Shown one piece after another: positions 38,296-56,346 of a stretch of DNA of 64,000 bases. This DNA is from Methanosphaera sp. (GTDB lineage Archaea; Methanobacteriota; Methanobacteria; Methanobacteriales; Methanobacteriaceae). A program made the position numbers and the translations under genes. The notes beneath the pieces are model-generated. The model did no database searches. It had not been told where the DNA came from and saw only the letters and a program-made list of their open reading frames with translations. The stretch spans positions 1 to 64,000 of the forward strand of contig NZ_JALEKL010000006.1 in the NCBI RefSeq assembly GCF_022768985.1, read 5' to 3'. Positions within the stretch are counted from its first letter, which is position 1. Every line of letters begins with the position of its first letter.

Positions 38296-39033
38296 ATGCT
38301 ACTTGAGATAAAAGATTTAAAAGTAGAAGTAGAAGGCAAAGAGATATTAAAAGGAGTAAACCTTAAAATCAACGAAGGAGAAACACACGTTTTATTAGGA
38401 CCAAATGGTGCAGGAAAAAGTACACTCTTTATGACAATACTAGGATTTCCAAACTACAACATAACTGGTGGACAAATCATATACAAAGGTCAAGACATAA
38501 CAAATATGGAAACACCAGACAGAATAAAACTAGGACTAGGTGTAACATTCCAAAACCCACCAGCAATACGTGGAGTAAAACTTGAAGATCTTCTTAAAAT
38601 AGAAGATTCAAAACACGAATACAAAACAGATGAAGAACTAACAGAAGATGTAAAACAACTAGGAGAAAGACTAAAACTCAACGACTCATTCCTAAATCGT
38701 GATGTAAATGTAGGATTTTCAGGAGGAGAAGTAAAAAGATCAGAACTACTCCAACTACTAGCACAAAAACCAGACTTCATCATGTTTGATGAACCAGACT
38801 CAGGAGTAGACATAGAAAATGTAGAACTTATTTCAAAAGAAATAAAAACACTACTAGACCAAGACAACTCAGATAGTCAAAAAGGTGGATTACTCATCAC
38901 TCACCTAGGATACATACTTGACTTTGTAAATGCAACAGATGCACACGTTCTAAAAGACGGTGTAATAGTAGCAAGTGGAGAACCTAAAGAAATACTAGAT
39001 ACAATAAGAGAATCAGGATTTGGAGGTGTATAA
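38296..39033 (+). CDS. sufC: Fe-S cluster assembly ATPase SufC
   Basis: A 245-residue ABC ATPase. Walker A GPNGAGKST (about 35-43), Q-loop VTFQNPP, the signature VGFSGGEVKRSELLQLL (about 140-156) and Walker B FIMFDEPDSGVD are visible; the SGGE(x)KR form and DEPDSGVD are typical of SufC. It has no membrane partner and instead works with SufB as an Fe-S scaffold. The ATG at 38296 has GGGTGA eight bases upstream. sufB follows after two bases. Confidence 0.94.
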   Translation: MLLEIKDLKVEVEGKEILKGVNLKINEGETHVLLGPNGAGKSTLFMTILGFPNYNITGGQIIYKGQDITNMETPDRIKLGLGVTFQNPPAIRGVKLEDLLKIEDSKHEYKTDEELTEDVKQLGERLKLNDSFLNRDVNVGFSGGEVKRSELLQLLAQKPDFIMFDEPDSGVDIENVELISKEIKTLLDQDNSDSQKGGLLITHLGYILDFVNATDAHVLKDGVIVASGEPKEILDTIRESGFGGV

Positions 39034-39035
39034 GT

Positions 39036-40253
39036 ATGGTATCATTAAAACAAAAAGCAGAAAAAGCAGCAGATAAAAAAGCACCAATAGGAGCAGATGT
39101 AGACTTATCAGAATTTGAAGCAGCAGATGAATTTGAACATGAAAGAATTGATTCACTCGAAGATCTCGACAAAGTAGATCTTGAAACACTTGCAAGTGTA
39201 GGAATGGAAACAGATGAAGAAGAAAGATCAGCATCATTTTTACAAATGGATCAATCAGAAGTACTCGTACAAAACATGTATCCAGGCGTAGAAGTAATGG
39301 GAATTAAACAAGCACTTGATAAATACGACTGGTTACCAGACTATATGTGGAAAGCAGTAGCAGTAGATGCAGATAAATATACAGCAAACACAGAACTAGG
39401 TGCAAGAAGTGGATACTTCATAAGAAGCCAACCTAATACAAAACTAGAACTACCTGTACAAGCATGTATGTACATTGAAAATGAAGATGTACAACAAACA
39501 GCACACAACATAATTATAGCTGAAGAAAACTCAGAAATAAACATCATCACAGGATGTTCAACAGCAGCACACGTTGATAAAGCAGCACACATTGGAGTAT
39601 CAGAATTCTACCTTAAAAAAGGTGCAAAAATAACATTTACCATGGTACACAACTGGGCACAAGATGTAGATGTAAGACCAAGAACAGGAGTAATAATGGA
39701 TGATGACTCAACATACATATCAAACTACATCCTAGCAAAACCTGTACACAACCTACAATCATACCCAACAGCATATGCAAATGGTAAAAACACAAAAGTA
39801 TTCTTCCAATCAATACTTGCAGGAAAAGAAGATTCAAACATAGATCAAGGATCAAGAACAATACTTAAAGGAGAAAACTCACAAACAGAAATGATCACAC
39901 GTGCAATATCAGAAGATCAATCAACAATATATACAAGAGGAGATCTTGTAGGACTATCCAAAGATGTACGTGGACACCTTGAATGTATGGGATTAATTTT
40001 ATCTGATGAATCAAAAATATACTCAATACCTGAACTTGGTGGACAATGTACAGATATGGAATTATCACACGAAGCTGCAGTAGGAAAAATCGCAGAAGAA
40101 GAAATCCAATACCTAATGGCTAGAGGATTAACAGAAGATGAAGCAGCATCAATGATTGTAAGAGGATTCCTTGACATAGACATTAAAGGATTACCTGATG
40201 AACTTGCAAAAGAAACAAAAAGATTAATTGACTTAAGTATGGAAGGAATGTAA
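39036..40253 (+). CDS. sufB: Fe-S cluster scaffold protein SufB/SufD family
   Basis: A 405-residue beta-helix protein. Conserved parts include EINIITGCSTAAHVDKAAHIG (split: NIITGCSTAAHVDKAAHIG, about 168-187), FTMVHNWAQDVDVRPRTG and the C-terminal SHEAAVGKIAEEEIQYLMAR (about 348-367) with EDEAASMIVRGF. In archaea a single SufB/D protein with SufC forms the minimal assembly system. The N-terminal 60 residues are charged. It directly follows sufC. Confidence 0.94.
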   Translation: MVSLKQKAEKAADKKAPIGADVDLSEFEAADEFEHERIDSLEDLDKVDLETLASVGMETDEEERSASFLQMDQSEVLVQNMYPGVEVMGIKQALDKYDWLPDYMWKAVAVDADKYTANTELGARSGYFIRSQPNTKLELPVQACMYIENEDVQQTAHNIIIAEENSEINIITGCSTAAHVDKAAHIGVSEFYLKKGAKITFTMVHNWAQDVDVRPRTGVIMDDDSTYISNYILAKPVHNLQSYPTAYANGKNTKVFFQSILAGKEDSNIDQGSRTILKGENSQTEMITRAISEDQSTIYTRGDLVGLSKDVRGHLECMGLILSDESKIYSIPELGGQCTDMELSHEAAVGKIAEEEIQYLMARGLTEDEAASMIVRGFLDIDIKGLPDELAKETKRLIDLSMEGM

Positions 40254-40272
40254 TCACCCAAGATACTACAAT

Positions 40273-40298
40273 ACCTCCCCTTCCAAACACCTTTTTTT
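40273..40298 (+). terminator. C-rich plus T-tract terminator of sufCB
   Basis: ACCTCCCCTTCC then AAACACC and seven T residues, about 20 bases after the sufB stop codon; CACCC also overlaps the stop region. It matches the window-wide signature. Confidence 0.5.
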
Positions 40299-40523
40299 AT
40301 ATAAAACTACTATTTTAATTAAATAAAACTACTAATTTTATCAATATATTAAATAAATCTATAAAAAATTAAACCACACATATAATTCTGATAAAAATAA
40401 TTCAAAAATTATAAAAAAATAAGAAAATTCTAAGTAATAATAAAAAAAGTTAGTAAGACAATATATTACTCAAAAAAAAAGAATTAAAATAATAAAAAAA
40501 GAAATAAATAATTTCCTTAATTA

Positions 40524-40790
40524 CTACCCTGATATAATTATAAATTCACCAACTTTTTCTACTTTACTAAATGGTACAACAAGTAAATCTCCATTACGTT
40601 TAGCACCTTTAAAAGATATGTTTCTTTCTGGATCTGTTTTTACAATGATGTCTGTGATTTTACCTGTTTTTTCATCGATTTCAAGTTCATGTAAGGTTCC
40701 AAGAATACGAGCATTACTTGTTGCTACTTGATAATCATAAATATCTGCCCATAATTTTTCTTCACCTTTAATTAGTTCGCGTTCTGTCAT
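40524..40790 (-). CDS. PRC-barrel domain protein
   Basis: An 88-residue single-domain protein. The strand pattern with GTLHELEIDEKTGKITDIIVK (split: GTLHELEIDEKTGKITDII, about 32-50) and LLVVPFSKVEKVGEFIII fits the PRC barrel, a fold found in RNA-processing and photosynthetic proteins. The archaeal role is unknown; RNA or ribosome metabolism is possible. I chose the ATG at 40790, five bases after GGTGG, over an upstream GTG. Confidence 0.8.
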   Translation of the reverse strand: MTERELIKGEEKLWADIYDYQVATSNARILGTLHELEIDEKTGKITDIIVKTDPERNISFKGAKRNGDLLVVPFSKVEKVGEFIIISG

Positions 40791-40952
40791 TAATTCCACC
40801 CAATCTATTTCATTTTATTTACTTGTCTTCTAATAATGGTCTAAATTCCATTTCTAGTTTTTAAAATTAAAAATTAACATGTTGGTAATATTAATAAAAA
40901 TATTTTTTTACTATAATATATATCTATGAATAGATAATTTATATAAATTTAT

Positions 40953-41546
40953 TTATTTTTTAATATAATGCTCTGATAAATTCAAATCATTTAATGTATT
41001 AATATTAAATGCAAGCTCAACATTATGTGATTCATAAATACTTTGATCTTGCTCTTCATTATTTGCCAAAAGAAGATTAACACCAGTAGGTACAAGACCC
41101 TTATAAACAAGTGTAGGTGTAATTCTATACTTTTTAAATAAAGAAGCAGGTACACTAACACACATTGCAGGCTTACCACGTTTATAGTAGTTATCTAAAA
41201 CATCATCAATCTGTTCACCAGTGATAAATGGAAGATCAGCAACAATGGTCATAATAACTTCATCTTCTTCTACATACTTACGATTAGATAATATGCTTGC
41301 AAGATCCTCAATATATCCTTCACCATCTGTATGAATAACTCTTACTGGAAACTTCTTTGCATACTCAGATGTATATGGAGTATTATCACTTACTGCCACT
41401 AGAATTTTATCAATAAATTCAGATTCAATTAAAGCTTCAATAACATAGCTAATCATTGGTCGTCCATTTACCTTAATCATTGGCTTTTCATAATCCAAGT
41501 CCATCCTAGTGCCTTTACCACCAGCCATTATTAAAGCAGTAGTCAT
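40953..41546 (-). CDS. cobY: Adenosylcobinamide-phosphate guanylyltransferase
   Basis: About 197 residues with the nucleotidyltransferase signature LIMAGGKGTRM (about 5-15), EKPMIKVNGRPMISYVIEAL and IVADLPFITGEQIDDV (the metal-binding Asp, about 97). Archaeal CobY activates cobinamide phosphate with GTP in the nucleotide-loop part of cobamide synthesis, which MtrA and methanol methyltransferases need. The start at 41546 fits known CobY N-termini; longer in-frame starts exist at 41561 and 41588. Confidence 0.88.
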   Translation of the reverse strand: MTTALIMAGGKGTRMDLDYEKPMIKVNGRPMISYVIEALIESEFIDKILVAVSDNTPYTSEYAKKFPVRVIHTDGEGYIEDLASILSNRKYVEEDEVIMTIVADLPFITGEQIDDVLDNYYKRGKPAMCVSVPASLFKKYRITPTLVYKGLVPTGVNLLLANNEEQDQSIYESHNVELAFNINTLNDLNLSEHYIKK

Positions 41547-41771
41547 TTTTTTAAAAACCATCCCTATTTTTAATATAAAATAATTCAATTATTAAAGTTA
41601 ATTAATTTAGTTAATACTTTATCTAAAGTAATATTAAAAATCTATGAATATATTTCAATTTTTATAAACTTTTTTATCTAAGTTTTTATATAAGATGTAA
41701 TAAAATAACTATATAAATCAATATATTTTTTTTAATATATGATCTATAAAATTTAAAGGATTTGAAAGAAA

Positions 41772-42644
41772 ATGTTTGAAAATTTTAAAACAGTACTTCT
41801 TCTCGGATCACTTACAGGAATTCTAATAGTTATAGGTGGAATTATAGGATCAATATTCCACTTAGCATCTCTTGGAATTATTATTGGATTTGTACTTGCA
41901 GTTGGTATGAACTTCATATCATACTTCTATTCAGATTCAATTACACTAAGTGCATATAATGCAAAGATTGTAACACCAGAAGAAGCACCAGTATTACATG
42001 AAATCGTAACAGAACTTGCAAATAATGCAGGAATCAAAAAACCAAAAGTAGCAATAATACCATCATATGAACCTAATGCATTTGCAACAGGTCGTAATGA
42101 AGATCACGCAGTAGTAGCAGCAACATCAGGAATTCTCAATTTACTTACACATGATGAAATAAAAGGAGTTTTAGCTCACGAAATAGGTCATATTAAAAAT
42201 AGGGATATTCTCATAAGCTCAGTTGCAGCAACAGTTGCTGGTATGATAACAATGGTTGCAGATCTTGGAAGATATGCAGTATTCTTTGCAGATGATGAAG
42301 ATGGTGGTGGAGCAATTGCATCAATACTTGTTGCAATTATAGCACCTATTGCTGCATCAATTATACAACTTGCAATTAGCCGTTCACGTGAATATAAAGC
42401 AGATGCAACAGGTGCAATGATTACATCAAATCCACTTGCACTTGCTGATGCACTTCGTAAAATAGAATCAGGAATTATAGACCAACCAATGGATGCAAAA
42501 CCTACAGATGCACATATGTTTATTATAAACCCATTTGAAGGTGCAGGTCAAAAACTTCTTAATCTATTTTCAACACACCCATCAACAGAAGACAGAATTA
42601 AACGTCTTGAAAAGATGAGTGTAACAGGTGAATACGATATATAA
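41772..42644 (+). CDS. htpX: M48-family zinc metalloprotease HtpX homologue
   Basis: A 290-residue membrane protease. Two N-terminal helices (about 7-55), the zinc motif HEIGHIKNRD (about 137-146), two more hydrophobic segments (about 150-165 and 180-200) and the third-ligand region SREYKADATGAM (about 205-216) are visible. HtpX degrades damaged membrane proteins. A TTTAAAGGATTTGAAAG sequence lies before the ATG. It stands alone. Confidence 0.93.
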   Translation: MFENFKTVLLLGSLTGILIVIGGIIGSIFHLASLGIIIGFVLAVGMNFISYFYSDSITLSAYNAKIVTPEEAPVLHEIVTELANNAGIKKPKVAIIPSYEPNAFATGRNEDHAVVAATSGILNLLTHDEIKGVLAHEIGHIKNRDILISSVAATVAGMITMVADLGRYAVFFADDEDGGGAIASILVAIIAPIAASIIQLAISRSREYKADATGAMITSNPLALADALRKIESGIIDQPMDAKPTDAHMFIINPFEGAGQKLLNLFSTHPSTEDRIKRLEKMSVTGEYDI

Positions 42645-42768
42645 TCGTAATTCATCTTTTTAATCTTTTTTTTAAAACTATTTTTTTTATTATAAAACTA
42701 GACACTTTTTTTTATTGAATATTTTTAATTTATTTAAAAAAAAGTAAAAAAAGTGGGTGTGGAGAATA

Positions 42769-44127
42769 TTATTTCTTGTTATATGCTACTCTTTGCTGCA
42801 TTATACACATACCATTTTTAAGTCCACCTATAGGATTTATTGGACTTCCAAGTGAATTCATACAACGTGCCATCATAAGAGCACCAAGAGCAAGACCATC
42901 TTGCATAAATATTATATCATCAAAAATATCACTTATATAATCTGTTGTTAGTTGTCTTTTACATCCTGTAATTGCAGCACGCCCAGTAATTCCAACAGAC
43001 ATATCCTGACATATAAGATTAAGTTTCTTACATTTACATACAATTCTTTTAATTAAGTATGCATTAATATCATCAATTTGAAGCATTATCTCATCATTGT
43101 TGTAGTTTTTGATACATCTATTAAATGTTTCAATTAACTTTTTTTCATCATCAATTTTTGATCCTATAACTTTAATTGAACTATCATTATATTCACTTCT
43201 ATCAACTTTTACACCACCATATTCACTAACATCTGGTGGTACTTCATCTACTGTGATATATTCATGAATTTTTTGTGTATTTTGTCCTATTTCATCGTAG
43301 TTTTCAATACTATATACACTTTCATCTACATCTATTGCTGAGTCTGATTCATTTATTATTTCACATCCACGAAGTAGAATGTCAGATATTGCACCTGCAA
43401 CTCCAATAAAGTAACATAGTGTATTTGCATAGGGAGTAGAACTATCCACTATACATCCTGCAAGTGTTGTTCCCATATCAATTGACATAACAGGATTTCT
43501 AAAGTCAACTAATGAATTTTTAGATGCAAGCTTTATACCAGCATTTACAAGTTCACTTTCCATCTGATTTGATACTAATGCCTTATATGCTGGATTTACA
43601 CTTACAATTGATCCATCAAATTCTATTGTATTGAAAAATGAATATCTACGTATATGTTGTGGAATATTATCAAGCTTAAATGGTGCTTTCATCTGTGAGG
43701 GTGTAATACCACATTTTAAACATCCATCAGATAATGCTTTAATTATAACTCCCATCATATCAGAAAGTTCTGCTACTGCAACAATTCCAGTTGATCTGAC
43801 AACAAAGTCAAGATCATCTACTTCAAGCTGTGCACCACTTAAACATTCACATATTATATCATAAATTGAATCTACAATTGCCTCTTTTGATAATGGCTTT
43901 TGCCAGATTGTTTTTCCAAATACCTCTTCACCAGCAAGGGGACTTCGTATGTTACGTGTTAGTTTTACACATTTATTTATAAGATAGCTTTTATTTGTCT
44001 TAAGATTTGTTGTTATGATAAATGATTTTATTGTTGTATTTCCAAGTTCTACAGAAAGTACTGTGTAGAAGTTATCGACTATAACATCTTTTGTAGTATT
44101 TTCAATTTCAATATATTCCTGCATCAT
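42769..44127 (-). CDS. Methanogenesis marker protein 14
   Basis: A 452-residue protein with an actin/ASKHA-like ATPase character: SVELGNTTIKSFIIT (about 29-43), MSIDMGTTLAGCIVDSSTPY (about 214-233) and VGITGRAAITG near the C-terminus. Its overall pattern matches methanogenesis marker protein 14, a methanogen-restricted family of unknown biochemical function. It begins 11 bases after mtrH with AGGAG, so it belongs to the mtr transcript. This points to a role in maturing or reactivating a corrinoid enzyme such as Mtr. That role is inference. Confidence 0.8.
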   Translation of the reverse strand: MMQEYIEIENTTKDVIVDNFYTVLSVELGNTTIKSFIITTNLKTNKSYLINKCVKLTRNIRSPLAGEEVFGKTIWQKPLSKEAIVDSIYDIICECLSGAQLEVDDLDFVVRSTGIVAVAELSDMMGVIIKALSDGCLKCGITPSQMKAPFKLDNIPQHIRRYSFFNTIEFDGSIVSVNPAYKALVSNQMESELVNAGIKLASKNSLVDFRNPVMSIDMGTTLAGCIVDSSTPYANTLCYFIGVAGAISDILLRGCEIINESDSAIDVDESVYSIENYDEIGQNTQKIHEYITVDEVPPDVSEYGGVKVDRSEYNDSSIKVIGSKIDDEKKLIETFNRCIKNYNNDEIMLQIDDINAYLIKRIVCKCKKLNLICQDMSVGITGRAAITGCKRQLTTDYISDIFDDIIFMQDGLALGALMMARCMNSLGSPINPIGGLKNGMCIMQQRVAYNKK

Positions 44128-44138
44128 AAACTCCTTTT

Positions 44139-45071
44139 TTATAGTAGGTTTTTATATGGATGTGAATCTATGGCATCTATTCCTATTGCTTCATTTGCCT
44201 CTGCAATGAACATATCTGTCATTGCACATGCACTAAATGCCATTCTTGTATTTTCAATAGGACCGAAAAGTACAAAGTCTCCTCCTGCCATTTGCTGAAT
44301 TATATTTGCTCCAACATCACATACAGGCCATACTTCTGGATGTTGTTTTTTATAGTCTTTTACCCAACTCCATGCTGATGGTACGTTATGTACTCCACTT
44401 CCTGCTGGATATCCCCATTTGCTTTTTTCATTTATTGTGGTTTTTATTGCACTTCCTCCACCTTGTCCTATTGGTGTTACTGCAACATCCATTAATGGTT
44501 TATATATTCCACAATCTTGTGCTATTTCAAGAAGTCCTTTTTCTAGTATTCCTGCTCCATCATCCCATAGACTGATTTTTCCTTCTACTCCTGGCTGTGT
44601 TGGATTAAATCCCAGAATTATTGATGATGTAATATCTGAATCTGTTAATGCTTCAATCTCATCTGAGTCAATTGACATATTTATTGAGTTATATATTGAT
44701 CTTTCAGCAAGCCCATTTTCTGTTACATATTTTGCTGCTGTTATTCTTGCATCTGCTGATGTTGAATCAAGAAGAAATGGTGAATCTGTTATTGATTCTA
44801 TGAAGTCTATATATTTTACAATTGCCTCACTTGTTGCACCAAATATCTGTACAATGTTTGGATTTCCTGTTGTATCTGTCATTTCATCCATTGTATTTAT
44901 AAGATCTTCTGCTTTTTGTTTATCAAATTCTCCCTTTTTTTCATCAGATATTATGTTATGTCCTGCATAAAATATTGTTCCTGCAAGTACTGTTGGATAT
45001 TCACCAGGTTGTCCTCCAACTTTTATTCCACCAATATCAAAGACTTCCTGTTTTTTTTCAAATTTAAACAT
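44139..45071 (-). CDS. mtrH: Tetrahydromethanopterin S-methyltransferase, subunit H
   Basis: About 310 residues, a methyl-H4MPT-binding TIM barrel. VGGQPGEYPTVLAGTIFYAGH (split: GGQPGEYPTVLAGTIFYAGH, about 20-39), GNPNIVQIFGA, DSTSADARI and VTPIGQGGGSAIKTT are well conserved. MtrH carries the methyl group from methyl-H4MPT to the corrinoid on MtrA. I chose the internal ATG at 45071 because known MtrH starts MFRF/MFKF; the open frame extends seven codons further. Conservation is high, unlike the membrane subunits upstream. Confidence 0.94.
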   Translation of the reverse strand: MFKFEKKQEVFDIGGIKVGGQPGEYPTVLAGTIFYAGHNIISDEKKGEFDKQKAEDLINTMDEMTDTTGNPNIVQIFGATSEAIVKYIDFIESITDSPFLLDSTSADARITAAKYVTENGLAERSIYNSINMSIDSDEIEALTDSDITSSIILGFNPTQPGVEGKISLWDDGAGILEKGLLEIAQDCGIYKPLMDVAVTPIGQGGGSAIKTTINEKSKWGYPAGSGVHNVPSAWSWVKDYKKQHPEVWPVCDVGANIIQQMAGGDFVLFGPIENTRMAFSACAMTDMFIAEANEAIGIDAIDSHPYKNLL

Positions 45072-45099
45072 TTCCAATCTACTCCCCATCAATTCTTTT

Positions 45100-45294
45100 T
45101 TAGATTATTCCATATTTCATTAGTATTATTATAAATACTAGAGCTATTATTATTCCATATAATATTCCTATGTCTCGTCCCATTTTTCTTGATGTTTTAT
45201 GTGAATATTGTATATTTTTCTCATCAAGCTTTTCATCTAATATATTAAGACGTTCATTTATTTCATCTATTTTCTTATTTATATCATCTGACAT
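45100..45294 (-). CDS. mtrG: Tetrahydromethanopterin S-methyltransferase, subunit G
   Basis: A 64-residue protein. An N-terminal coiled-coil-like stretch (INKKIDEINERLNILDEKL) is followed by RKMGRDIGILYG (about 36-47), the recognisable MtrG motif, and one C-terminal membrane helix. It is somewhat shorter than MtrG in relatives (about 75-85 residues). MtrF would be expected just upstream, but only 14 bases separate it from mtrA. Confidence 0.85.
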   Translation of the reverse strand: MSDDINKKIDEINERLNILDEKLDEKNIQYSHKTSRKMGRDIGILYGIIIALVFIIILMKYGII

Positions 45295-45308
45295 CTTAAT
45301 TAACCTTC

Positions 45309-46064
45309 TTATATTAGTACTAGTATTATTAATGCTAAGATAAATCCTATAACTATTCCTTCTATTTTTCCTATGTCATATCCTGATTCTTGATTTTTAT
45401 ATGTGGTTGTATTTTTTATCTGCATATCTAGAACTTTGATATGATTTTGGATTTCATTAATTTTTACTGATGTTTCATCAACCATTGCAGATGTTGTTGT
45501 GACTGTTTGTATGTCATTATCTGTTATGTTATCATCTGTTTCATCTTCTGGTTTTTCATTAAGTTTTACAATCATTGCCTCTTCATGATATGCTCCAGGA
45601 TCATTAGCTATACAGTCTTTTATTTTCTGTTGTATTTCATCCAGATTTTCATTATCTATCATGTCAACTAGTTCTATTTGATCTTGGAATCTTGCTATTG
45701 ATTCTTCTGTTAGATTTTCAACAAATGGTATTGCTCCTTTTGATCCTATGATTGACTTTGTATCTGGTTCTATACCATTTTCATATAATGCTGTGATTGT
45801 CTGTCCTGTTATGTGTCCTTGTACTTCTGATCCACATACTATTACATAACGTATATTTGGATTTGCAACTACGTTTGCAACCATCTTTTCTATTCCAAGA
45901 TTTTCTGTATGTAGAGGTCCTGCAATTGCAGCTCCAGCATCTAGTAGTGGTTCATTCATCTTTGATCCTAGTGATACTACAGCAACACAACTTTCACTAT
46001 CTGCACTATCATAGTCTCCTGTTTCTCGTGGCCAATTTTCTGCTGCTTGTTTTTTATCTACCAA
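45309..46064 (-). CDS. mtrA: Tetrahydromethanopterin S-methyltransferase, subunit A (corrinoid protein)
   Basis: A 251-residue corrinoid-binding subunit. GPLHTENLGIEKMVANVVAN (about 49-68) and VCGSEVQGHITGQTI contain His84, the position that ligates cobalt in known MtrA. The catalytic domain is strongly conserved, the linker (about 170-225) is not, and a single C-terminal helix (GIVIGFILALIILVLI) anchors it. Start is TTG at 46064, supported by GGGGTGA five to six bases upstream. The gene lies between mtrB and mtrG. Confidence 0.94.
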   Translation of the reverse strand: MVDKKQAAENWPRETGDYDSADSESCVAVVSLGSKMNEPLLDAGAAIAGPLHTENLGIEKMVANVVANPNIRYVIVCGSEVQGHITGQTITALYENGIEPDTKSIIGSKGAIPFVENLTEESIARFQDQIELVDMIDNENLDEIQQKIKDCIANDPGAYHEEAMIVKLNEKPEDETDDNITDNDIQTVTTTSAMVDETSVKINEIQNHIKVLDMQIKNTTTYKNQESGYDIGKIEGIVIGFILALIILVLI

Positions 46065-46080
46065 TACTATTCACCCCTAA

Positions 46081-46356
46081 TTATATTACTAGAAGTATTA
46101 CAACTAGTATGAAGATTATAGATAAAACTATATTTAGTATTATGCCAGGATTATGTGACATATTTTCTATTGTATTTATTTTATCTATGTTATCTGTCAT
46201 TTTTTCTAGTTCATCTACTTGTGCTTGTATTTGTTCTATTTTTTCTATGTTATTGTTGATAATATTATTTTGCTGTGTATCATTTTTTGATCTTATTGTT
46301 GATGTTTTTGTATCTAGTATTAGTTCATCATCAATAATTATATTATTCATATCCAT
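46081..46356 (-). CDS. mtrB: Tetrahydromethanopterin S-methyltransferase, subunit B
   Basis: A 91-residue protein, diverged but with the MtrB layout: an N-terminal strand NNIIIDDELILDTKTSTIRS resembling the family's ...LDPSTG.I start, a Gln/Glu/Asp-rich coiled segment (IEKIEQIQAQVDELEKM) and a C-terminal helix (IILNIVLSIIFILVVILLVI). It sits between mtrC and mtrA as in other methanogens. Assignment leans on gene order. Confidence 0.72.
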   Translation of the reverse strand: MDMNNIIIDDELILDTKTSTIRSKNDTQQNNIINNNIEKIEQIQAQVDELEKMTDNIDKINTIENMSHNPGIILNIVLSIIFILVVILLVI

Positions 46357-46389
46357 TACCTAAAATCCCACCTTAAATTAATCCATTTA

Positions 46390-47136
46390 TTATTTATTAT
46401 TTCTTCCATCTGTTAGACTATAATATTGTATTGATGCTGCCTGGTGTTTTACATGTTTTATAAACTTACTTAGTGAAGCTATTAAACATATTATGCATAT
46501 TATCATGTAAATGTAGTTGTATGTATTTTGTTGTATTATTGATAATGCTATCATTATTAGAAATGTATATATTACTGCTACATTTAATGTTCTTATTTGT
46601 TCTTCATTTGGTCCTTTTGATGTGTTATATGCTAGTTGTGATATTAGAGCTACTGCTAGTATAGGAAGTATTATAACTCCATTTTCTATCATGTTTGTAT
46701 TTATTATATTTATGTTAAATGTTGATGCTATAAATGTTGCCATTGCAATTACTGCAATTTGTGATGAAACTGAAATATCCATCATGTAATGTGTATCTTC
46801 TATATTTGAAATATGTTTTAATATTACACCCACTATTATTCCAACAATTGCAGATATTATTATACTAATTATCATTGAAAGGTATCCAATTTTGAGGGCA
46901 ACTATTAAGGATATTATAGAACATATAATTGTGATAAATGTTACAATACAATCAGATAAATAACCACCATCTGTACGGCGAATTGTGTTTGTCATATATA
47001 ATATACCACAAAGAGCTACTATAATTGAAAATACACCACTAAAACTTGGAAGCAATAGGGCAAATGCCATCATAATAATACTTATACCAACACATGAAAA
47101 TCTTAAAAATTCATATGCTACTATGTCATCATTCAT
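46390..47136 (-). CDS. mtrC: Tetrahydromethanopterin S-methyltransferase, subunit C, highly diverged
   Basis: A 248-residue membrane protein with seven to eight hydrophobic segments. Assignment rests on short matches to MtrC as I remember it: NTIRRTDGGY (about 49-58) against the family's DAVRRVASYG, and SKGPNEEQIRTLNVAV (about 182-197) against SLGPDETQDRTL.LAV. Elsewhere the sequence is replaced by Ile/Leu/Met-rich helices, unlike the Gly/Ala-rich helices of typical MtrC. It overlaps mtrE by four bases. No mtrD lies between them. Confidence 0.7.
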   Translation of the reverse strand: MNDDIVAYEFLRFSCVGISIIMMAFALLLPSFSGVFSIIVALCGILYMTNTIRRTDGGYLSDCIVTFITIICSIISLIVALKIGYLSMIISIIISAIVGIIVGVILKHISNIEDTHYMMDISVSSQIAVIAMATFIASTFNINIINTNMIENGVIILPILAVALISQLAYNTSKGPNEEQIRTLNVAVIYTFLIMIALSIIQQNTYNYIYMIICIICLIASLSKFIKHVKHQAASIQYYSLTDGRNNK

Positions 47137-47903
47137 GCTAATACACCACCTATAAATAATAATACTACAACAATAATAACCACTACCATTGCATTAAATG
47201 TGCCAAGTAATGCAAATAATACAAAAAATAGTAGAATCAATACAGAAAATACTATACCTTTAATTAAACCCTGTACTTTAAGTTGTAAAATTTTAAGATT
47301 AAAACTATCTTCTCTTAAAATTATATCATTATCATTATGATATATTTTACAAACTACTCTATCTTCAACAATAGTGGATATTGATCCAATTGCAACTGCA
47401 AGTATTAAATTTAATATAAATACACTCATATTAAATGCCATATTTTCAAAGAGAATATATGAAATAAGTGTTATTGCAAAGCTACAAATAAATGAAGATA
47501 TAACCAGTTGCATACTATTTTCAACTAAAACATCGACATGTAATGGTTGATCATACAATGCCTGAGTTGTAATTTTAGCCATATATGCAACAATTGTAAT
47601 AATTGTATATATAACAGATGCAATAAGTGCTGATAAAACTAATGCCGGCATCGTATCGACTATTGGCTGTAATGTTTGAAATATAATTCCCGTTAATGTA
47701 ACTATTGTTACAAGAAGAATTGAATTTGAAGTTGTTGTTTTAAAAAATAATTTATGTTTTTTAGATCTTCTAGGTGCATCAATAATTAAGTTATTAACAT
47801 TTTCTGATTTACTATCATATTCAAGATTTGAAAACATTCCAGTAAAAAATGCTAAAACAACTGCAATAATGATAATTCCTAGATTATATGCGAAGTTCAT
47901 CAT
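47133..47903 (-). CDS. mtrE: Tetrahydromethanopterin S-methyltransferase, subunit E, highly diverged
   Basis: A 256-residue membrane protein with about six hydrophobic segments. The clearest MtrE match is YDQPLHVDVLVENSMQLV (about 116-133) against the family's ..QPVYMDVLTSHIGPIV, followed by ITLISYIL and VAIGSIST, and an N-terminal match EYDSKSENVNN against ESDVGSQSNPN. Typical MtrE is about 295 residues; the loop after GSIS is shorter and a conserved acidic residue there seems replaced. It starts 116 bases after mcrC with GGGGGAAA upstream. Confidence 0.68.
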   Translation of the reverse strand: MMNFAYNLGIIIIAVVLAFFTGMFSNLEYDSKSENVNNLIIDAPRRSKKHKLFFKTTTSNSILLVTIVTLTGIIFQTLQPIVDTMPALVLSALIASVIYTIITIVAYMAKITTQALYDQPLHVDVLVENSMQLVISSFICSFAITLISYILFENMAFNMSVFILNLILAVAIGSISTIVEDRVVCKIYHNDNDIILREDSFNLKILQLKVQGLIKGIVFSVLILLFFVLFALLGTFNAMVVVIIVVVLLFIGGVLA

Positions 47904-48019
47904 GTATTTCCCCCACTATAAAAAAAAGAGAATCAAAAATTTTAAAAAAATAATAAATTAATAAAAAAATAAATTAAAAGAAAAAAAGAAAGAGAGTAAA
48001 TACTCATCTTTTTTCCCAT

Positions 48020-48622
48020 CTAATTTCCATATTCTGTAATTGCAAAGTTTACTTTGTCAATAATTTCATCAAGTTTTTCCTGTGAACAGGATTCTCCACG
48101 TATAACATCGGTGATAATTTCAACGATTGTACCAGCTGTTTCTGGTTTTTCTGGCATAACAGCCCTTGTTTTAACTCCTATTTTTGCAAAGTCTTCAAAG
48201 TCAAGAGGATACTGTGCAATTATAACGATAGGTTTATCAACATTTCTAAGAGCATGTCTTGCCTTGTAGATAATATGGTTTTTTACACCACCAAAGTGGA
48301 AAAGTACAATATTATGACGTTCCATCTGTGCTATTTCTTTTGGTGTTACACCGAAAAGTCCTGAGTTTCCTCCACCAGGTGCATCTTTTGGAACTCCAGA
48401 TCCTGCATTTAATACAAGTGTACTTGTTTCAATATTTGCTTCACGAAGTGCAAATGTAATTTCACATACAGGTTTTGTAATATGTCTACGTCCAGGGGAC
48501 ATTGCAACAGCTACAAGTTCACTTCCACTTTTTGCATATGTTCCACGCTGTGCAATTCCTCCACCTTCACCTATTCCACGTGTTTCCCTACAATCAACAA
48601 TGTGTGTTCGTCTTCCTATCAT
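48020..48622 (-). CDS. mcrC: McrC-type reductase activation protein (orphan)
   Basis: A 200-residue protein matching McrC closely: [20 protein letters not shown] (about 3-22), [20 protein letters not shown] (about 38-57), [16 protein letters not shown] and [20 protein letters not shown]. In operons of the mcrBDCGA type, C is embedded between D and G, and mtr follows. Here C alone remains, immediately upstream of mtr, while the reductase operon (mrtBDGA) lies 16 kb away. McrC belongs to the complex that activates the reductase. It may be co-transcribed with mtr. Confidence 0.93.
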
Positions 48623-48745
48623 AAATCTTAACTTCCTATTTAAATTAAATTATAAATATATATTATTTATTTTGTTTATAACATAGATTATATTTTACTA
48701 TATTAAAAAAAGCTCTATCAAAAAAAAATGGATAATTAATTTATT

Positions 48746-49532
48746 TTATATTTTAAGATTCCTTACCCATTCATCGTATTCTTGAAGGTTAGTATATGGA
48801 GGTTTTGAATCTATTGCTCTTGCCATATCTTTAGTATAATAATTCATCCAATAATTATCAAAGACCTCTTCACTACGATTTGAAAATGATCCTTTACCAT
48901 TTATTAATTTATCTATATTTTTAACAGATCCAATATTTTTAGTATTTCCACTTCCAGGTTTATCTGTTGCTAATTTCCATTTTTCTTGGAGTAGAAATGT
49001 GAAATCATTAGCAACTGAAGTTATACTATCTAAATCATCAATAGTATATTTTTTATATTCATTAACTTCTTGTTTGCTTCTCCTATAAATGACTCCTAAA
49101 ACAAAATGAGCTGAATAATCATTGTAAGGAAACAAGATATTTTTTAGTTGATGTTCTATTTCTGAAATATCCTGTAAATGAACCTAGTGTAAATCCATTT
49201 ACTGAATTTTTATTTTTATAATATGTACTTTTTAAATCAACAGCTATTTTTTCATCATCTTCTGTGATAAGTGTAATATCAGGATAATGGTTTTGATGTT
49301 GTGCAGGTAAGACTTTATAATTATGTTCTGATGCAAATTTTAATATACTAGGAAAAAGCATGAGCTCTATAATTTTAGAAATTACTTTTGTATCTAATGA
49401 TATAGTGTAAATATTTTTATAAATATCTATGAAACCTTTTACAACCCATTCATTATCTTCTGTTGTGATAACTTTTTTGAATTCATCAAAATATCCAAGT
49501 AGATCTTTTCTAAATTCTTCTTTTTGAAACAT
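48746..49532 (-). pseudogene. EcoRV-like type II restriction endonuclease, frameshifted
   Basis: Two adjacent frames together form one EcoRV-family enzyme of about 255 residues. The first (49119-49532) has HQNHYPDITL and IAVDLKSTYY, giving the PD...D-x-K active site (Asp85, Asp99, Lys101) and FRNRTSTK. The second (48746-49135) continues with NDYSAHFVLGVIYRR, FLLQEKWKLATDKPGSGNTK (the DNA-recognition loop) and EYDEWVRNL. Removing one base from a six-A run (T run 49140-49145 on the plus strand) joins them as STKNILFPYNDYSAHF. Start ATG is two bases after the methylase stop. Confidence 0.85.
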
Positions 49533-49534
49533 TT

Positions 49535-50627
49535 TTACTCACCTATGAATAATAATTCTTCAGATTTTTTATTTTTTGATAAAGCATATCTGTAATTTCC
49601 ATAAGTTTTAACACTAACATTAGATTTATATTGACTAATTATTTCCTCAAGTTTTTCTTTAGAGGGAATTCCATCGCTACGATATGAAATAACTAATGTA
49701 TTATCTTGTATTTGTTAATAAGTTTATCAAACTCATTAGTAATGGCTTTTTTATCATTCCATACATTTTTTTAGGAATTAATCTGTTATGTTTTGATTTA
49801 TAGTCAATATTATCTTCCCATTCATCATAAATTAACATTCCTTCTAAGAAGTGGTAAAATCCATAATAATCTACTGTTGAACCTTTACTTGAAATATAAG
49901 GTGTGTCAATGTAAACTAAGTCATACTCAGATAAGTTGGTAATATCCATCACATCAAGATTTAATGACATATTCTGTTGTCCATTATCAAAAATACTATT
50001 ATTTGCCTCATTAACAAATTTTAAAAACCAATCTTGAAAAGGTGTATCCCATGTTTTCTTATTTCCAAAAGATCTCTTAACATCTGATGTTCTCATGTAT
50101 AAATTTTTTCTATGGAATAAATTATATGGTCTTTTTATAATACATGCTTGGCAAAGAGCAAAAAATGCTAGAGCAAATTTATATTCATTATTTAATTCAT
50201 TTATATTAGCTATAGTAATATCTAACCATTTATTTTCTTCATCTGTAAAATAAGTATCTTTAAAATTATCCTGAATTATTGTTTTATATTCTATATCATC
50301 ATGTTTTTTTAATATAAAATTAAGGTCTTCTTCATTTAAAGTGATTTCATTATTTTCTATTAAAGCTTTTCCAAATTGATGATTAAAATTTAATAAATCA
50401 TTATATGTAACTTTTTTTCCCATCTTTTTATAAGTATATGAAACACAACCAGTACCACCAAATGCATCTAATACTGTTGTAAAATTCAAATCTTTTGTTT
50501 CATTTTTCCAATCACAAAGTTTTAATTTACTTCCCTGATATCTTGTAGATGGAAATTTAAATGATTCATACTGTGTATTGATAATTTTAGAAGGTTGATT
50601 ATAATTAAATAAGTTACTTTGTACCAT
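49535..50627 (-). pseudogene. DNA adenine methyltransferase (D12-like), frameshifted C-terminus
   Basis: The main frame (49701-50627, 308 residues) has PSTRYQGSKLKL (about 26-37), motif I DAFGGTG (about 54-60) and motif IV VYIDTPYIS (DTPY 241-244). It then ends abnormally. A shifted frame continues as AITNEFDKLINKY, and a third as DNTLVISYRSDGIPSKEKL... to YRYALSKNKKSEELLFIGE, stopping at 49535. This C-terminus is typical of the family, so two single-base losses (one in an A run near 49745-49755) are the simplest reading. It partners the EcoRV-like endonuclease. Confidence 0.8.
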
Positions 50628-50806
50628 AAAATTATCCCTCCTATTATTTAATTATATATATGATTTAGTAATTTATATTTCTTTTAAAAAGACTCTGATA
50701 ATAATTTTGATAATAAAAATTATTTTTTTTATAATTAAAAATCAGCCATTTTTTTAACACTGCTCTTAAAAAACTTAATTAAATAACACAGATAAATATA
50801 ATATTT

Positions 50807-52054
50807 ATGCAGATAATGGCTGATGTTGGAGGAATACCTGGTAAAAATTGCAGAGGATTTTGTGAATACTGCTATTTTAGAAATGTTAAAGGTACAACAG
50901 TTCTAGGGTGTAAAAACTGTCCTCCTGGACAGATTGGATGTGCTCATTGTACAACTGATACAAATATGACACGTGATTTTATACCACCATTCCAGGTATT
51001 ATCCTCACTACAAACTAATATTTTTCAAACACAAATACCAGAAGATACTCTTATAAATATTACAGGTGATGGTGATGTGAGTTGTTATCCACATCTTCTT
51101 GAACTTACAGATTCAATAAATAATATGGGTCTTAAAACACACCTTGGATATACTAGTGGTAAGGGATTTGATGATGCAGATGTTGTTGATAAGCTTATTA
51201 ATAATAATGTTACAGAGACAACATACACAGCATTTGCAACAGATCCACAGCTAAGATATAAGTGGATGCATGATCCAACACCTGAAGCATCAATTGAGGG
51301 ACTTAAAAGATTTTGTGAATCATGTGATGTTCATGCAGCATCTATTATAATACCTGGTGTTAATGATGGTGAAGTTTTAAGAAAAACTTGTGAAGATCTT
51401 GAAAGTTGGGGTGCAAAGGCACTTATCTTGATGCGTTTTGCAAATTCTCAAAATCAGGGACTTATACTTAATAGTGAACCTATCATACCATCAGTTCAAC
51501 AGCAGAGTGTTGATGAATTCAGAAGACTTGTTGAAGATACAGCAAAAGAATACAGTCTCCGTGTTACAGGAACACCAGTGTGTGATCCACAAAATGACAC
51601 TCCATATGCTCTTGCAAAGGATAAAAACATGGAGTACCTTGAAGTATTAACAGAAGTTAAAGCTGAAGCTACAATTATTACAAGTAAAATTTCTGCACCA
51701 TATATTGAGAAGATCTTTGAAAATCTTGGATGTGCAGATCATGTAAATGTTGTTGCAACAGAACAGGAAATTGCATGTCTTATAAGACCTGATGATCTTC
51801 GTGCTATTGATCTTAGTGAAGTTAAAGATACTGTTATTATTCCTGGTCGTTGTTTTGTTCATGACCTTGTTGCTGAGGAAATTTTACGTAGTGATGGACG
51901 TTTCCGTCTTATTCATAGAGGTCCTGACATGCTTACAGCTGATGGTGAAATGAGTGGAACATTATCAAAAACTGACGTACTAAAACAGGAGTTAATGGCA
52001 TTTGAGGATCTTATTGAACTTATAAATTACATGGGAGTACCTATAAAAAATTAG
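50807..52054 (+). CDS. mmp10: Methanogenesis marker 10: McrA arginine methyltransferase (radical SAM)
   Basis: A 415-residue B12-dependent radical SAM methylase. The family signature is VGGIPGKNCRGFCEYCYF (about 7-24), with CX3CX2C, followed by a second Cys group GCKNCPPGQIGCAHC. Mmp10 adds the 5-methyl group to the active-site arginine of McrA (Arg275 of MrtA in this window). TTAATTAAATAAC lies about 30 bases before the ATG and no ribosome site is seen, so the mRNA may be nearly leaderless. taw2 follows after 39 bases. Confidence 0.9.
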   Translation: MQIMADVGGIPGKNCRGFCEYCYFRNVKGTTVLGCKNCPPGQIGCAHCTTDTNMTRDFIPPFQVLSSLQTNIFQTQIPEDTLINITGDGDVSCYPHLLELTDSINNMGLKTHLGYTSGKGFDDADVVDKLINNNVTETTYTAFATDPQLRYKWMHDPTPEASIEGLKRFCESCDVHAASIIIPGVNDGEVLRKTCEDLESWGAKALILMRFANSQNQGLILNSEPIIPSVQQQSVDEFRRLVEDTAKEYSLRVTGTPVCDPQNDTPYALAKDKNMEYLEVLTEVKAEATIITSKISAPYIEKIFENLGCADHVNVVATEQEIACLIRPDDLRAIDLSEVKDTVIIPGRCFVHDLVAEEILRSDGRFRLIHRGPDMLTADGEMSGTLSKTDVLKQELMAFEDLIELINYMGVPIKN

Positions 52055-52093
52055 ATTTTTTTTATTTTATTATTTTTTTGAGGTTTAAATATA

Positions 52094-52825
52094 ATGAAAG
52101 GTAAATTAATTGGAGATATACTTGTTGTTAAAAATGTTCCTGAAAACTTAGATGAACTAGTAGAACTTCCATATATTAATAGGGTTGTGAAAATTGGACA
52201 TATTCATGGACAAAAAAGAGAACCTGAAATTGAGATGATATATGGTGAGGGAACAGAAACTATACATAAGGAAAATCATTGTAAATTTAAAATTGATGTT
52301 GCAAAAGTAATGTGGTCTAAGGGAAATACAGCAGAAAGACAGAGAATGAGTACACTTCCTGAGGATGGTGAAACTATTATTGACATGTTTGCTGGTATTG
52401 GATATTTCACAATTCCTATGGCTGTACATTCAAATGTCAAAAAGATTCATGCAATTGAAATAAATCCTGTATCACATAATTTTCTTTGTGAAAATATTAA
52501 ATTAAATAAGGTTGAAGATATCGTTGAACCTATTCTTGGTGACTGTGCAAAGCAGGACTTTGATCATGTTGCAGATAGAATTATGATGGGATATATTGGA
52601 ACAACCCATCATTACCTTGATGATGCTATGCGTTATCTTAAAGAGGGTGGAATTATTCATTATCATGAATCAACACCAGAGCCAATATTATTTAAAAGAC
52701 CTGTTGAACGTGTAAAACAGGCAGCAAAAAACTGTGGACGAACAATTGAAGTACTTAATAAACGCAGTATTAAGAAATACTCACCTGGTGTTCATCACAC
52801 AGTTGTTGATATAAAAGTAAACTAA
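52094..52825 (+). CDS. taw2: Taw2-type tRNA wyosine 3-amino-3-carboxypropyltransferase
   Basis: A 243-residue Rossmann methyltransferase-fold enzyme. DMFAGIGYFTIPMA (about 98-111) is the SAM motif, AIEINPVSHNFLCENIKLN follows, and MMGYIGTTHHYLDDAMRYLK plus GGIIHYHESTPE match the TYW2/Taw2 group rather than Trm5, whose equivalent is an NLP motif. It transfers the aminocarboxypropyl group to 4-demethylwyosine at position 37 of tRNA-Phe. It lies just after mmp10 and may share its transcript. Confidence 0.82.
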   Translation: MKGKLIGDILVVKNVPENLDELVELPYINRVVKIGHIHGQKREPEIEMIYGEGTETIHKENHCKFKIDVAKVMWSKGNTAERQRMSTLPEDGETIIDMFAGIGYFTIPMAVHSNVKKIHAIEINPVSHNFLCENIKLNKVEDIVEPILGDCAKQDFDHVADRIMMGYIGTTHHYLDDAMRYLKEGGIIHYHESTPEPILFKRPVERVKQAAKNCGRTIEVLNKRSIKKYSPGVHHTVVDIKVN

Positions 52826-52837
52826 ATTATTTATATC

Positions 52838-52865
52838 AACACCCTACTTTTACTATTTTTTTTTA
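52838..52865 (+). terminator. C-rich plus T-tract terminator of taw2
   Basis: CAACACCCTAC, then TTTTACTA and nine T residues, 13 bases after the stop codon and overlapping the 3' end of convergent cofG. Confidence 0.45.
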
Positions 52866-53945
52866 TATCTTTTTTTGTAATTTCAGTGCTTTATCATATA
52901 CTTTCTTACTTAGATATTTTCTATCTATATATTTATCATATACTGGAAGTCTTTCTTTGAGTGTGTAATTTAGGCTTTCTACTTGTTTTTGTATTTCATT
53001 AATTTCAGGCCATGGTGCATCTGGATTTACAAAGTCTTCTGTTACTGGTGATATTCCACCAACATCATCTGCTCCTGTTGTTATAAATATGGGCAATAGT
53101 TGTCTGTTTAGATTTGGTGGTATTTGTATACTTACATCATTAAATAGTAGTTTTGCAACTATTACAATCTTGATTAGATCTACAATTTCAGGTTCTGGAT
53201 GATCTTCCATTGCAATTCCTTTTTTGGGTTTGAAGTTTTGAAGTATTATCTCTTGAATATGTCCATATTTATCTTGTAGTTTTCGTATTTCAAAGAGTGA
53301 GTCGATATGATCATCTTTACTTTCTCCTATTCCAAGAAGTAATCCTGTTGTAAATGGTATATTTAGTTTTCCTGCATTTTCTATGTAATTTAGGCGTTTC
53401 TTTGGATCTTTTCCAGGACTGTCTTTGTGTACTATTGTTTTTAGTAGTTTACGATTTGTTGTTTCAAGCATCAGTCCCATTGATGCATTAACTTGTGATA
53501 GTTTATATAGATCATCATAGTCTATTATTCCCATGTTTGTATGTGGTAGTATATTGTATTTATTAAGTGTTACCTCACATAGATGGTATAGATAGTCGAC
53601 CATTGTTTCATATCCATATTCATCTAGTTTTGCTTTTACATAGTTGTTTGTATCTGCATTTTCTCCAAATGTATATAGTGCTTCTGTACAGTTGTATTTT
53701 TGTGCTTGAGTTAGTAGATTTTTTGTTTCATCCTCATTCATAAGAATATATGATGCATCCTCTGGTGTTTGTTTAAATGTACAATATCCACAATTATTTT
53801 GACATATATGTGTTAAAGGTAGAAATACATTCTTTGAATATGTAATTTCATGGCTTGATCTTTGAATGTTAATTTTTTTAAGTAAATCTAGTATATCAAC
53901 TATATCATAATCTAGGATCTTTCGTGCTTCATTTTTTGAAATCAT
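52863..53945 (-). CDS. cofG: 7,8-didemethyl-8-hydroxy-5-deazariboflavin synthase, subunit CofG
   Basis: A 360-residue radical SAM enzyme. LTHICQNNCGYCTF (about 44-57) is the CX3CX2C cluster site; YTFGENADTN, HTNMGII, MGLMLETTN, DSPGKDPKKRL and LLLGIGESKDD follow the CofG pattern. With CofH it makes the deazaflavin ring of coenzyme F420. It is a single gene here; cofH is not in the window. Confidence 0.92.
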   Translation of the reverse strand: MISKNEARKILDYDIVDILDLLKKINIQRSSHEITYSKNVFLPLTHICQNNCGYCTFKQTPEDASYILMNEDETKNLLTQAQKYNCTEALYTFGENADTNNYVKAKLDEYGYETMVDYLYHLCEVTLNKYNILPHTNMGIIDYDDLYKLSQVNASMGLMLETTNRKLLKTIVHKDSPGKDPKKRLNYIENAGKLNIPFTTGLLLGIGESKDDHIDSLFEIRKLQDKYGHIQEIILQNFKPKKGIAMEDHPEPEIVDLIKIVIVAKLLFNDVSIQIPPNLNRQLLPIFITTGADDVGGISPVTEDFVNPDAPWPEINEIQKQVESLNYTLKERLPVYDKYIDRKYLSKKVYDKALKLQKKI

Positions 53946-54033
53946 AATTAATCACACTAAAATAAGTAAAAATTTAAAATATTAAAAAAAAGTAGTTGAA
54001 AATTAAAAAATTAATTAGAGTAGAAATTATATT

Positions 54034-54498: not shown

Positions 54499-54504
54499 CT
54501 TTTA

Positions 54505-55449: not shown

Positions 55450-55473
55450 TATCTAAATTCTCCCCCAAATTAT

Positions 55474-55986: not shown

Positions 55987-56346
55987 GTCCCTTCATATCA
56001 TTTTTTTATTTTTAAAATTTACATAATATTTTTTTTAATGTTTTTAGAATTTTTTATTCTGTCTTTTTGAAATTACCTATCAAAATTAACTTATCCTTAA
56101 AAAAAAGGATGTTATACTTAAGTTATATAAAATCTAGTTAAGTTAAATTAGATTATACTTATATTAATTTATATAGTTTTTGAAAATATATAAAAATTTT
56201 TAACTTTTAAATAGATTATTTACAATAATTAAGCTTTTTTATTGAAAAGTTTTATTTAAAAAATAATTCATATAAATATTATAATACTATGAGAAAAATA
56301 ATATATAACTATATAAATTCTTAAAAAAAAGATACGGTGAAAACTA
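55987..56346. other. AT-rich divergent spacer
   Basis: Between the Lrp regulator and the 56347 gene. It contains repeated TTAAGTTA-type stretches at about 56120-56145 and TATA-like stretches near 56160-56180 and 56290-56310. No gene is seen. Confidence 0.4.

What the first reader, a model, noticed from the sequence alone, without database searches (positions are those of the whole stretch)
44139..47903. Reduced mtr operon: no MtrD or MtrF, and strongly diverged MtrE and MtrC
Seen: the order is E-C-B-A-G-H. MtrE and MtrC overlap by four bases and MtrA and MtrG are 14 bases apart, so there is no room for the usual mtrD or mtrF. MtrA (with His84) and MtrH are well conserved, while MtrE and MtrC keep only short family motifs and their Gly/Ala-rich helices have become Ile/Leu-rich. 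A conserved acidic residue in the MtrE GSS/GSI region seems replaced. Known: Mtr normally couples methyl transfer to Na+ export through the E, D and C membrane subunits. Inference: the complex may have lost or changed Na+ coupling and serve only anabolic methyl exchange between CoM and H4MPT in a methanol-reducing methanogen. I do not recall whether this has been described.
Basis: partly seen in the sequence, partly recalled or inferred. Interest (0 to 1): 0.85.

Follow-up and report, generated by a model that had tools for sequence, protein, structure and literature searches.

The report
Stripped-down Mtr complex in Methanosphaera
In this gut methane-producer the gene set for Mtr, normally a sodium-pumping enzyme of methanogens, has lost two membrane subunits and key sodium-binding residues but kept its methyl-transfer parts, so it probably works as a non-pumping biosynthetic enzyme.

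Summary
The window carries an mtr operon of order E-C-B-A-G-H on the minus strand, with no mtrD or mtrF here or elsewhere in the assembly (98% complete), by Pfam and genus-built profiles. This is not a genus trait: 16 Methanosphaera-group genomes carry the full operon. Only one other (G120, MAG S3R_St_10) is reduced: no recognisable D, no F, and equally diverged E and C. Two genomes that seemed to lack mtr also lack mcrC and marker 14, so they say nothing.

Divergence is selective. MtrH keeps 129 of 131 conserved positions, and MtrA keeps its corrinoid domain with His84. MtrE and MtrC fall to about 30% identity (70% and 56% within the genus), yet their frames are open where neutral drift would give about 13 stops each.

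Best reading: a maintained, probably non-pumping Mtr keeping the MtrH-MtrA half-reaction for biosynthesis. Without Na+ drive the CoM-to-H4MPT direction is uphill by about 30 kJ/mol, so the likely flow is methyl-H4MPT to MtrA, then to CoM or, through MesA, methionine. I found no earlier description: a new variant of a known complex.

The parts
47133..47903 (-). mtrE' : diverged MtrE, 256 aa (intact genus copies 289-294), Na+ pocket eroded, cytoplasmic loop shortened
   Evidence: Pfam MtrE 71.7 bits; phmmer to 8q3v_E E=2e-12; hhalign to core MtrE 99.4%; about 30% identity to genus copies, which share 70%
46390..47136 (-). mtrC' : diverged MtrC, 248 aa, overlaps mtrE' by 4 bases; keeps the Asn and the GPNExQxRTL loop at the corrinoid/CoM face
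   Evidence: Pfam MtrC 95.7 bits; AF2 pLDDT 84.5, Foldseek 8q3v_C TM 0.82; motif retention
46081..46356 (-). mtrB : 91 aa; N-terminal strand (MtrH dock) kept, hairpin that contacts MtrE deleted
   Evidence: TIGR04166 22.6 bits, below cut-off 50; genus profile 28 bits; alignment
45309..46064 (-). mtrA : 251 aa, corrinoid domain and His84 conserved, stalk/TM tail diverged
   Evidence: Pfam MtrA 268 bits; corrinoid domain 67.5% vs 76.4% within genus; GSEVQGHITG motif
45295..45308 (.). 14-base A-G gap where mtrF (60-62 aa) lies in every intact genus operon
45100..45294 (-). mtrG : 64 aa stalk subunit
   Evidence: Pfam MtrG 53.2 bits
44139..45071 (-). mtrH : 310 aa from the conserved ATG (MFKFEKKQ), pterin methyltransferase
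   Evidence: TIGR01114 482 bits; 129 of 131 conserved positions kept; pterin-site residues kept
48020..48622 (-). mcrC, upstream flank (same position in intact operons)
   Evidence: TIGR03264 331 bits; synteny
42769..44127 (-). methanogenesis marker 14, downstream flank (same position in intact operons)
   Evidence: TIGR03285 555 bits; synteny

Best explanation
This is a vertically inherited, stripped Mtr complex. In a lineage that makes methane by reducing methanol with H2, Mtr is no longer the energy-conserving pump. The Na+-pumping globe has been partly dismantled: MtrD and MtrF are gone, MtrE has lost Na+ ligands, and MtrE and MtrC are remodelled. The cytosolic half-reaction (MtrH moves methyl between H4MPT and the cobamide of MtrA) is kept. 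The complex most likely does not pump Na+ and serves biosynthesis. It runs in the exergonic direction from methyl-H4MPT to MtrA, and from there to CoM (via the remodelled E'C' cavity) or to homocysteine through MesA (methionine synthesis). Shown from sequence: gene loss, loss of Na+ ligands, conservation of MtrH and MtrA, open frames of E' and C'. Inferred: no Na+ transport, direction of flow, methyl acceptor.
For: No D or F in the genome, with positive controls in 16 genus operons. Na+ site of two cryo-EM structures (PMC10998594, PMC12774963): Ser29 to Tyr, Glu61 to Asn, Asp26 to Asn here; Glu61 to Ile, Asp187 to Met, Asp30 to Asn in G120; all invariant in 16 reference genomes. MtrB hairpin that contacts MtrE deleted in both, MtrH-docking strand kept. 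MtrH loses 2 of 131 conserved positions, MtrA 5 of 61, whereas MtrE's Na+-pocket segment keeps 8 of 26. E' and C' are not pseudogenes: neutral simulation to the observed divergence gives 13-15 stops, and 0 of 200 runs stayed open. CoM-facing Asn38(E) and Asn188(C) kept here, Arg113 to Lys. Mer in 20 of 20 genus genomes; the MesA family (Meth_synt_2) in both reduced genomes. MesA is predicted to take methyl from MtrA (PMC7857596). Only the CoM half-reaction is Na+-dependent and the overall drop is -30 kJ/mol (PMC10998594).
Against: Asp187 and Asp30 are kept here, so some ion binding is not excluded. In G120 the CoM-facing residues are gone as well (Arg113 to Thr, Asn38 to Tyr, Asn188 to Ile), so the two reduced complexes may not do the same thing. 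Mer and MesA occur in intact genomes too, so their presence does not discriminate. No expression or biochemical data.
Confidence: 0.6

Rival explanations
1. Decay in progress: with Mtr dispensable, the whole operon is on its way out and the membrane subunits have little or no function; MtrA and MtrH simply decay more slowly.
For: Two genomes show different stages and different residue losses. Thomas et al. (PMC9723798) proposed Methanosphaera as an intermediate towards complete loss of Mtr. An mtr-disrupted M. acetivorans grows by methyl reduction with H2 (PMC13224831).
Against: E', C', B, A, G and H are all open frames; neutral drift to this divergence gives 13-15 stops in E and about 13 in C. 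MtrH is almost unchanged at conserved sites. E' and C' keep specific motifs in both genomes (QPLxxD; GPNExQxRTL).
Confidence: 0.2
2. Methanol-fed route: the MtrA-MtrH remnant takes methyl from the methanol:corrinoid system (MtaBC) and charges H4MPT without passing through CoM or the Na+ gradient, supplying C1 units from methanol.
For: It would make an MtrH-MtrA pair without a pump useful in the anabolic direction. By recalled standard energies (not looked up), methanol to methyl-H4MPT is near equilibrium. MtrH is related to pterin methyltransferases such as MtgA that work with soluble corrinoid proteins.
Against: No mta gene was seen in the part of the window read (38000-56000). No direct evidence that MtaB methylates MtrA. 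E' and C' would have no obvious role.
Confidence: 0.12
3. It still pumps ions: E' with Asp30 and Asp187, plus C', form an altered pore (perhaps other stoichiometry or another ion).
For: Asp187 and Asp30 kept; E' and C' maintained as membrane proteins. MtrC, D and E share one fold (PMC10998594), so a second E' or C' could in principle fill the MtrD place.
Against: Ser29, Glu61, Asp26, Ser183 and the flanking glycines of helix V changed; MtrD, MtrF and the MtrB-MtrE hairpin gone. In G120 Glu61 and Asp187 are both lost.
Confidence: 0.07
4. Assembly or binning artefact.
For: The genome is in 15 contigs; MtrD is missing from 13 of 78 good genomes of the family, so absence by itself is weak evidence.
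Against: The operon is contiguous between mcrC and marker 14, with a 4-base E-C overlap and a 14-base A-G gap, in a 72.6-kb contig. An assembly error cannot produce 70% divergence with open frames. A second, independent genome shows the same type of reduction.
Confidence: 0.01

Closest known systems
MtrEDCBAFGH of Methanosphaera stadtmanae and 15 other genus genomes (full complex)
   Same: Same locus (mcrC - mtr - marker 14), same order, near-identical MtrH, conserved MtrA corrinoid domain
   Different: Intact MtrD (230-237 aa), MtrF (60-62 aa) and invariant Na+ ligands there; all altered or absent here
Mtr of Methanothermobacter marburgensis (8q3v) and Methanosarcina mazei (9qtq)
   Same: MtrE' and MtrC' match by sequence and fold; MtrH and MtrA catalytic residues kept
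   Different: No MtrD or MtrF; Na+ site incomplete; MtrB hairpin missing
Mtr of Methanimicrococcus, obligate methyl reducers with an 'anabolic' Mtr (PMC11362671, PMC9723798)
   Same: Same metabolic setting; Mtr not used for energy conservation
   Different: They keep the full E-D-C-B-A-F-G-H operon
Methanomassiliicoccales and other methyl reducers without Mtr
   Same: Possible end point of the same trend
   Different: No mtr operon there (PMC9635834); here six subunits remain and are maintained

Membership tests
Mtr (N5-methyl-H4MPT:CoM methyltransferase) | MtrH with pterin-site residues (Asp103, Asn129, Asp196, Asn230 of M. mazei) | tested here: met
   all present at the matching positions (offset of one); 482 bits to TIGR01114
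Mtr (N5-methyl-H4MPT:CoM methyltransferase) | MtrA cobamide domain with His84 | tested here: met
   281 bits to TIGR01111; GSEVQGHITG motif intact
Mtr (N5-methyl-H4MPT:CoM methyltransferase) | MtrE and MtrC recognisable by family profile | tested here: inconclusive
   above Pfam cut-offs, below NCBIfam equivalog cut-offs; folds match
Mtr (N5-methyl-H4MPT:CoM methyltransferase) | MtrD present | tested here: not met
   absent in locus and genome
Mtr (N5-methyl-H4MPT:CoM methyltransferase) | MtrF present | tested here: not met
   absent in locus and genome
Mtr (N5-methyl-H4MPT:CoM methyltransferase) | MtrE Na+ ligands Ser29, Glu61, Asp187 | tested here: not met
   Tyr, Asn, Asp: one of three kept
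Mtr (N5-methyl-H4MPT:CoM methyltransferase) | CoM-contact residues Asn38 and Arg113 (MtrE), Asn188 (MtrC) | tested here: inconclusive
   Asn, Lys, Asn here (conservative); Tyr, Thr, Ile in G120
Mtr (N5-methyl-H4MPT:CoM methyltransferase) | Na+-translocating methyl transfer | not testable with these tools
   needs purified complex
Pseudogene operon | disrupted or freely drifting reading frames | tested here: not met
   all frames open; neutral expectation 13-15 stops in E and about 13 in C

The most novel reading that the evidence does not exclude
A sodium-independent Mtr: a maintained E'C'BAGH complex, arisen perhaps twice in Methanosphaera, in which MtrA-MtrH has become a biosynthetic methyl donor (for MesA or CoM), showing that Mtr's half-reactions can be separated from the ion pump in nature.
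Probability: 0.4. Interest if true: 0.78.

Novelty: new variant of a known kind. Interest (0 to 1): 0.62.

Why it matters
Mtr is the central ion pump of most methanogens, and how methyl transfer drives Na+ across the membrane is unresolved. A natural Mtr without MtrD, MtrF and most Na+ ligands, beside close relatives with the full complex, is a natural deletion experiment on which parts belong to catalysis and which to pumping. It also supplies the intermediate stage towards loss of Mtr that Thomas et al. (PMC9723798) expected in methyl-reducing gut methanogens. The recent survey of Methanobacteriota (PMC13135261) states that all genomes encode MtrA-H; this genome is an exception.

Tried and rejected
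(1) G108 and G113, which have no mtr gene at all, first looked like complete loss; both also lack mcrC and marker 14, so the locus is simply missing from these assemblies. (2) G120's 175-aa ORF in the mtrD place was tested as a decayed MtrD: no significant profile similarity and no Pfam family; only place and hydrophobicity suggest it. (3) A general trend of methyl reducers: rejected for Methanimicrococcus, six loci with full operons. (4) Single origin of the reduction: the best tree separates G000 (near G119, support 56) from G120, but a common clade is not rejected (AU p 0.085); left open. (5) MtrF replaced by or fused to MtrA: the weak MtrF signal on MtrA's tail occurs in most intact genus genomes too. 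(6) Structure of the Na+ pocket: the MtrE' model has pLDDT below 50 in residues 22-59 and 179-213, which hold the pocket, so nothing is concluded from it. (7) The whole genome was not available as a file, so it was searched by profile only. Fricke 2006 and Hoedt 2018 are not held as full text, so earlier mention there cannot be excluded.
Full report
WHAT IS THERE. The window is the first 64 kb of contig 6 (72.6 kb) of a 1.61-Mb genome in 15 contigs, 98% complete. The genus contains G123, 1,767,403 bp in one contig, which I take from memory to be Methanosphaera stadtmanae DSM 3091. Named neighbours found by MtrH are Methanosphaera MAGs. The operon reads, on the minus strand: mcrC, mtrE', mtrC', mtrB, mtrA, mtrG, mtrH, methanogenesis marker 14. 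The E'-C' overlap is 4 bases and the A-G gap 14 bases. In the intact genus operons (16 genomes) the order is mcrC-E-D-C-B-A-F-G-H-marker 14 with D of 230-237 aa and F of 60-62 aa.

NO MtrD OR MtrF ELSEWHERE. The Pfam MtrD model finds nothing over its cut-off in the genome (best 13 bits, inside a 785-aa frame). Genus-built profiles, more sensitive, find MtrD in all 16 intact genomes at 366-404 bits and nothing but that same 13-bit hit here, and MtrF in all 16 at 104-121 bits and only MtrA's own tail here. These genus profiles were built from the intact copies, so the positive controls are partly circular; the Pfam search is independent of them. Absence from an assembly is by itself weak evidence: MtrD is missing from 13 of 78 good genomes of the family. 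The contiguous locus is what makes the case.

A SECOND CASE AND TWO FALSE ONES. Of 20 genus genomes, 18 carry the locus. Sixteen are intact; G000 (this one) and G120 are reduced. G120 (MAG S3R_St_10, L104/L036/L037) has E' of 254 aa, a 175-aa hydrophobic ORF in the D place without detectable MtrD similarity, C' (split over two contig ends), B, A, G of 55 aa, H, and no F. G108 and G113 have no mtr gene, but lack mcrC and marker 14 too, so they are assembly gaps. Methanimicrococcus, another obligate methyl reducer, keeps the full operon.

SELECTIVE DIVERGENCE. Mean identity to genus copies (genus-internal value in brackets), G000 / G120: mcrC 81 / 75 (91), MtrH 81 / 73 (84), MtrA 57 / 51 (68), MtrG 51 / 36 (66), MtrE 30 / 29 (70), MtrC 30 / 33 (56), MtrB 30 / 29 (54). 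E' and C' of the two genomes share only 23% with each other. The tree branch of G000 is 2.9 substitutions per site for MtrE and 1.9 for MtrC, against 0.15 for MtrH and 0.33 for six joined proteins. MtrH loses 2 of 131 conserved positions and MtrA 5 of 61; MtrA's corrinoid domain is at 67.5% (76.4% within the genus), its stalk and membrane tail at 36% (53%). The pterin-site residues named for M. mazei MtrH are all present.

THE SODIUM SITE. Two structures agree on Na+ ligands Ser29, Glu61 and Asp187 of MtrE, with Asp26 and Asp30 near by (PMC10998594; PMC12774963 with its own numbering). All five are invariant in the 16 references examined. In the order Ser29, Glu61, Asp187, Asp26, Asp30 they are here Tyr, Asn, Asp, Asn, Asp; in G120 Ser, Ile, Met, Asp, Asn. 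Glu61 is lost in both, the rest in different ways, as expected if the site is no longer selected. CoM-facing residues Asn38 and Arg113 (MtrE) and Asn188 (MtrC) are Asn, Lys and Asn here, but Tyr, Thr and Ile in G120. MtrC' keeps the GPNExQxRTL loop by the corrinoid in both. MtrB keeps its N-terminal strand, which docks MtrH, but has lost in both genomes the hairpin that touches MtrE (contacts from PMC12774963). MtrF, which also contacts MtrE and MtrB, is gone. The losses thus converge on the attachment and ion path of the globe.

NOT PSEUDOGENES. Simulated neutral drift from intact genus genes to the observed amino-acid divergence gives on average 13-15 stops in E and about 13 in C; none of 200 runs per comparison stayed open. 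Even at half that divergence about 6-8 stops are expected. The AlphaFold2 model of C' is good (pLDDT 84.5) and matches 8q3v_C at TM 0.82; that of E' is poor overall (61.6), worst in the pocket, but its only significant match is MtrE of M. mazei.

HOW IT PROBABLY WORKS. Mtr has two half-reactions: MtrH moves methyl from H4MPT to MtrA's cobamide, and MtrCDE moves it on to CoM; only the second is Na+-dependent, and the sum is -30 kJ/mol (PMC10998594). Methanosphaera conserves energy by reducing methanol with H2 and is thought to use Mtr only for biosynthesis (PMC9723798, PMC13135261). In intact species the Na+ gradient can push methyl from CoM to H4MPT. It could run from methyl-H4MPT (made by Mer, present in all 20 genomes) to MtrA, then to CoM through E'C', or to homocysteine through MesA, which is predicted to use MtrA as donor (PMC7857596); its family is present in both reduced genomes. 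The CoM route fits this window, where the CoM residues are kept. The methionine route fits both genomes, because it needs only MtrH and MtrA, the two parts that are best conserved. These functional steps are inference.

ONE ORIGIN OR TWO. The best tree of six proteins places G000 by G119 (support 56), which has a full operon, and G120 elsewhere; a common clade costs 15.6 log units but is not rejected (AU p 0.085). Different residue losses and a D-place ORF in one only also lean towards two events.

NOVELTY. Literature searches found no report of an Mtr without MtrD and MtrF; one recent survey states that all Methanobacteriota encode MtrA-H (PMC13135261). Two central Methanosphaera genome papers are not held. 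I rate it a new variant of a known kind.

Noticed in passing
window 48746-49135(-) and 49119-49532(-), with 49701-50627(-): EcoRV-type restriction endonuclease (PF09233, both halves) split by a frameshift, beside a D12-class adenine DNA methyltransferase: a type II R-M pair with a broken nuclease, lying between mcrC and a radical SAM gene that is next to mcrC in G120.
   Followed up: partly
G120, L037 5223-5750: A 175-aa, very hydrophobic ORF occupies the mtrD place between mtrE' and mtrC' but shows no detectable similarity to MtrD or to any Pfam family.
   Followed up: partly
G108 and G113 (genus genomes, 97% and 70% complete): mcrC, the mtr operon and marker 14 are all missing from these assemblies; marker-based completeness did not flag the gap in G108.
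   Followed up: yes
window 45309-46064 tail; same in other genus genomes: The membrane tail of MtrA gives weak profile matches to MtrF, MtrG and MtrB, suggesting that the stalk helices are related to each other.
   Followed up: no
family-wide survey: MtrD is not found in several near-complete assemblies of another genus of the family (g10, e.g. G051 and G059 at 99%); probably assembly gaps, not examined.
   Followed up: no
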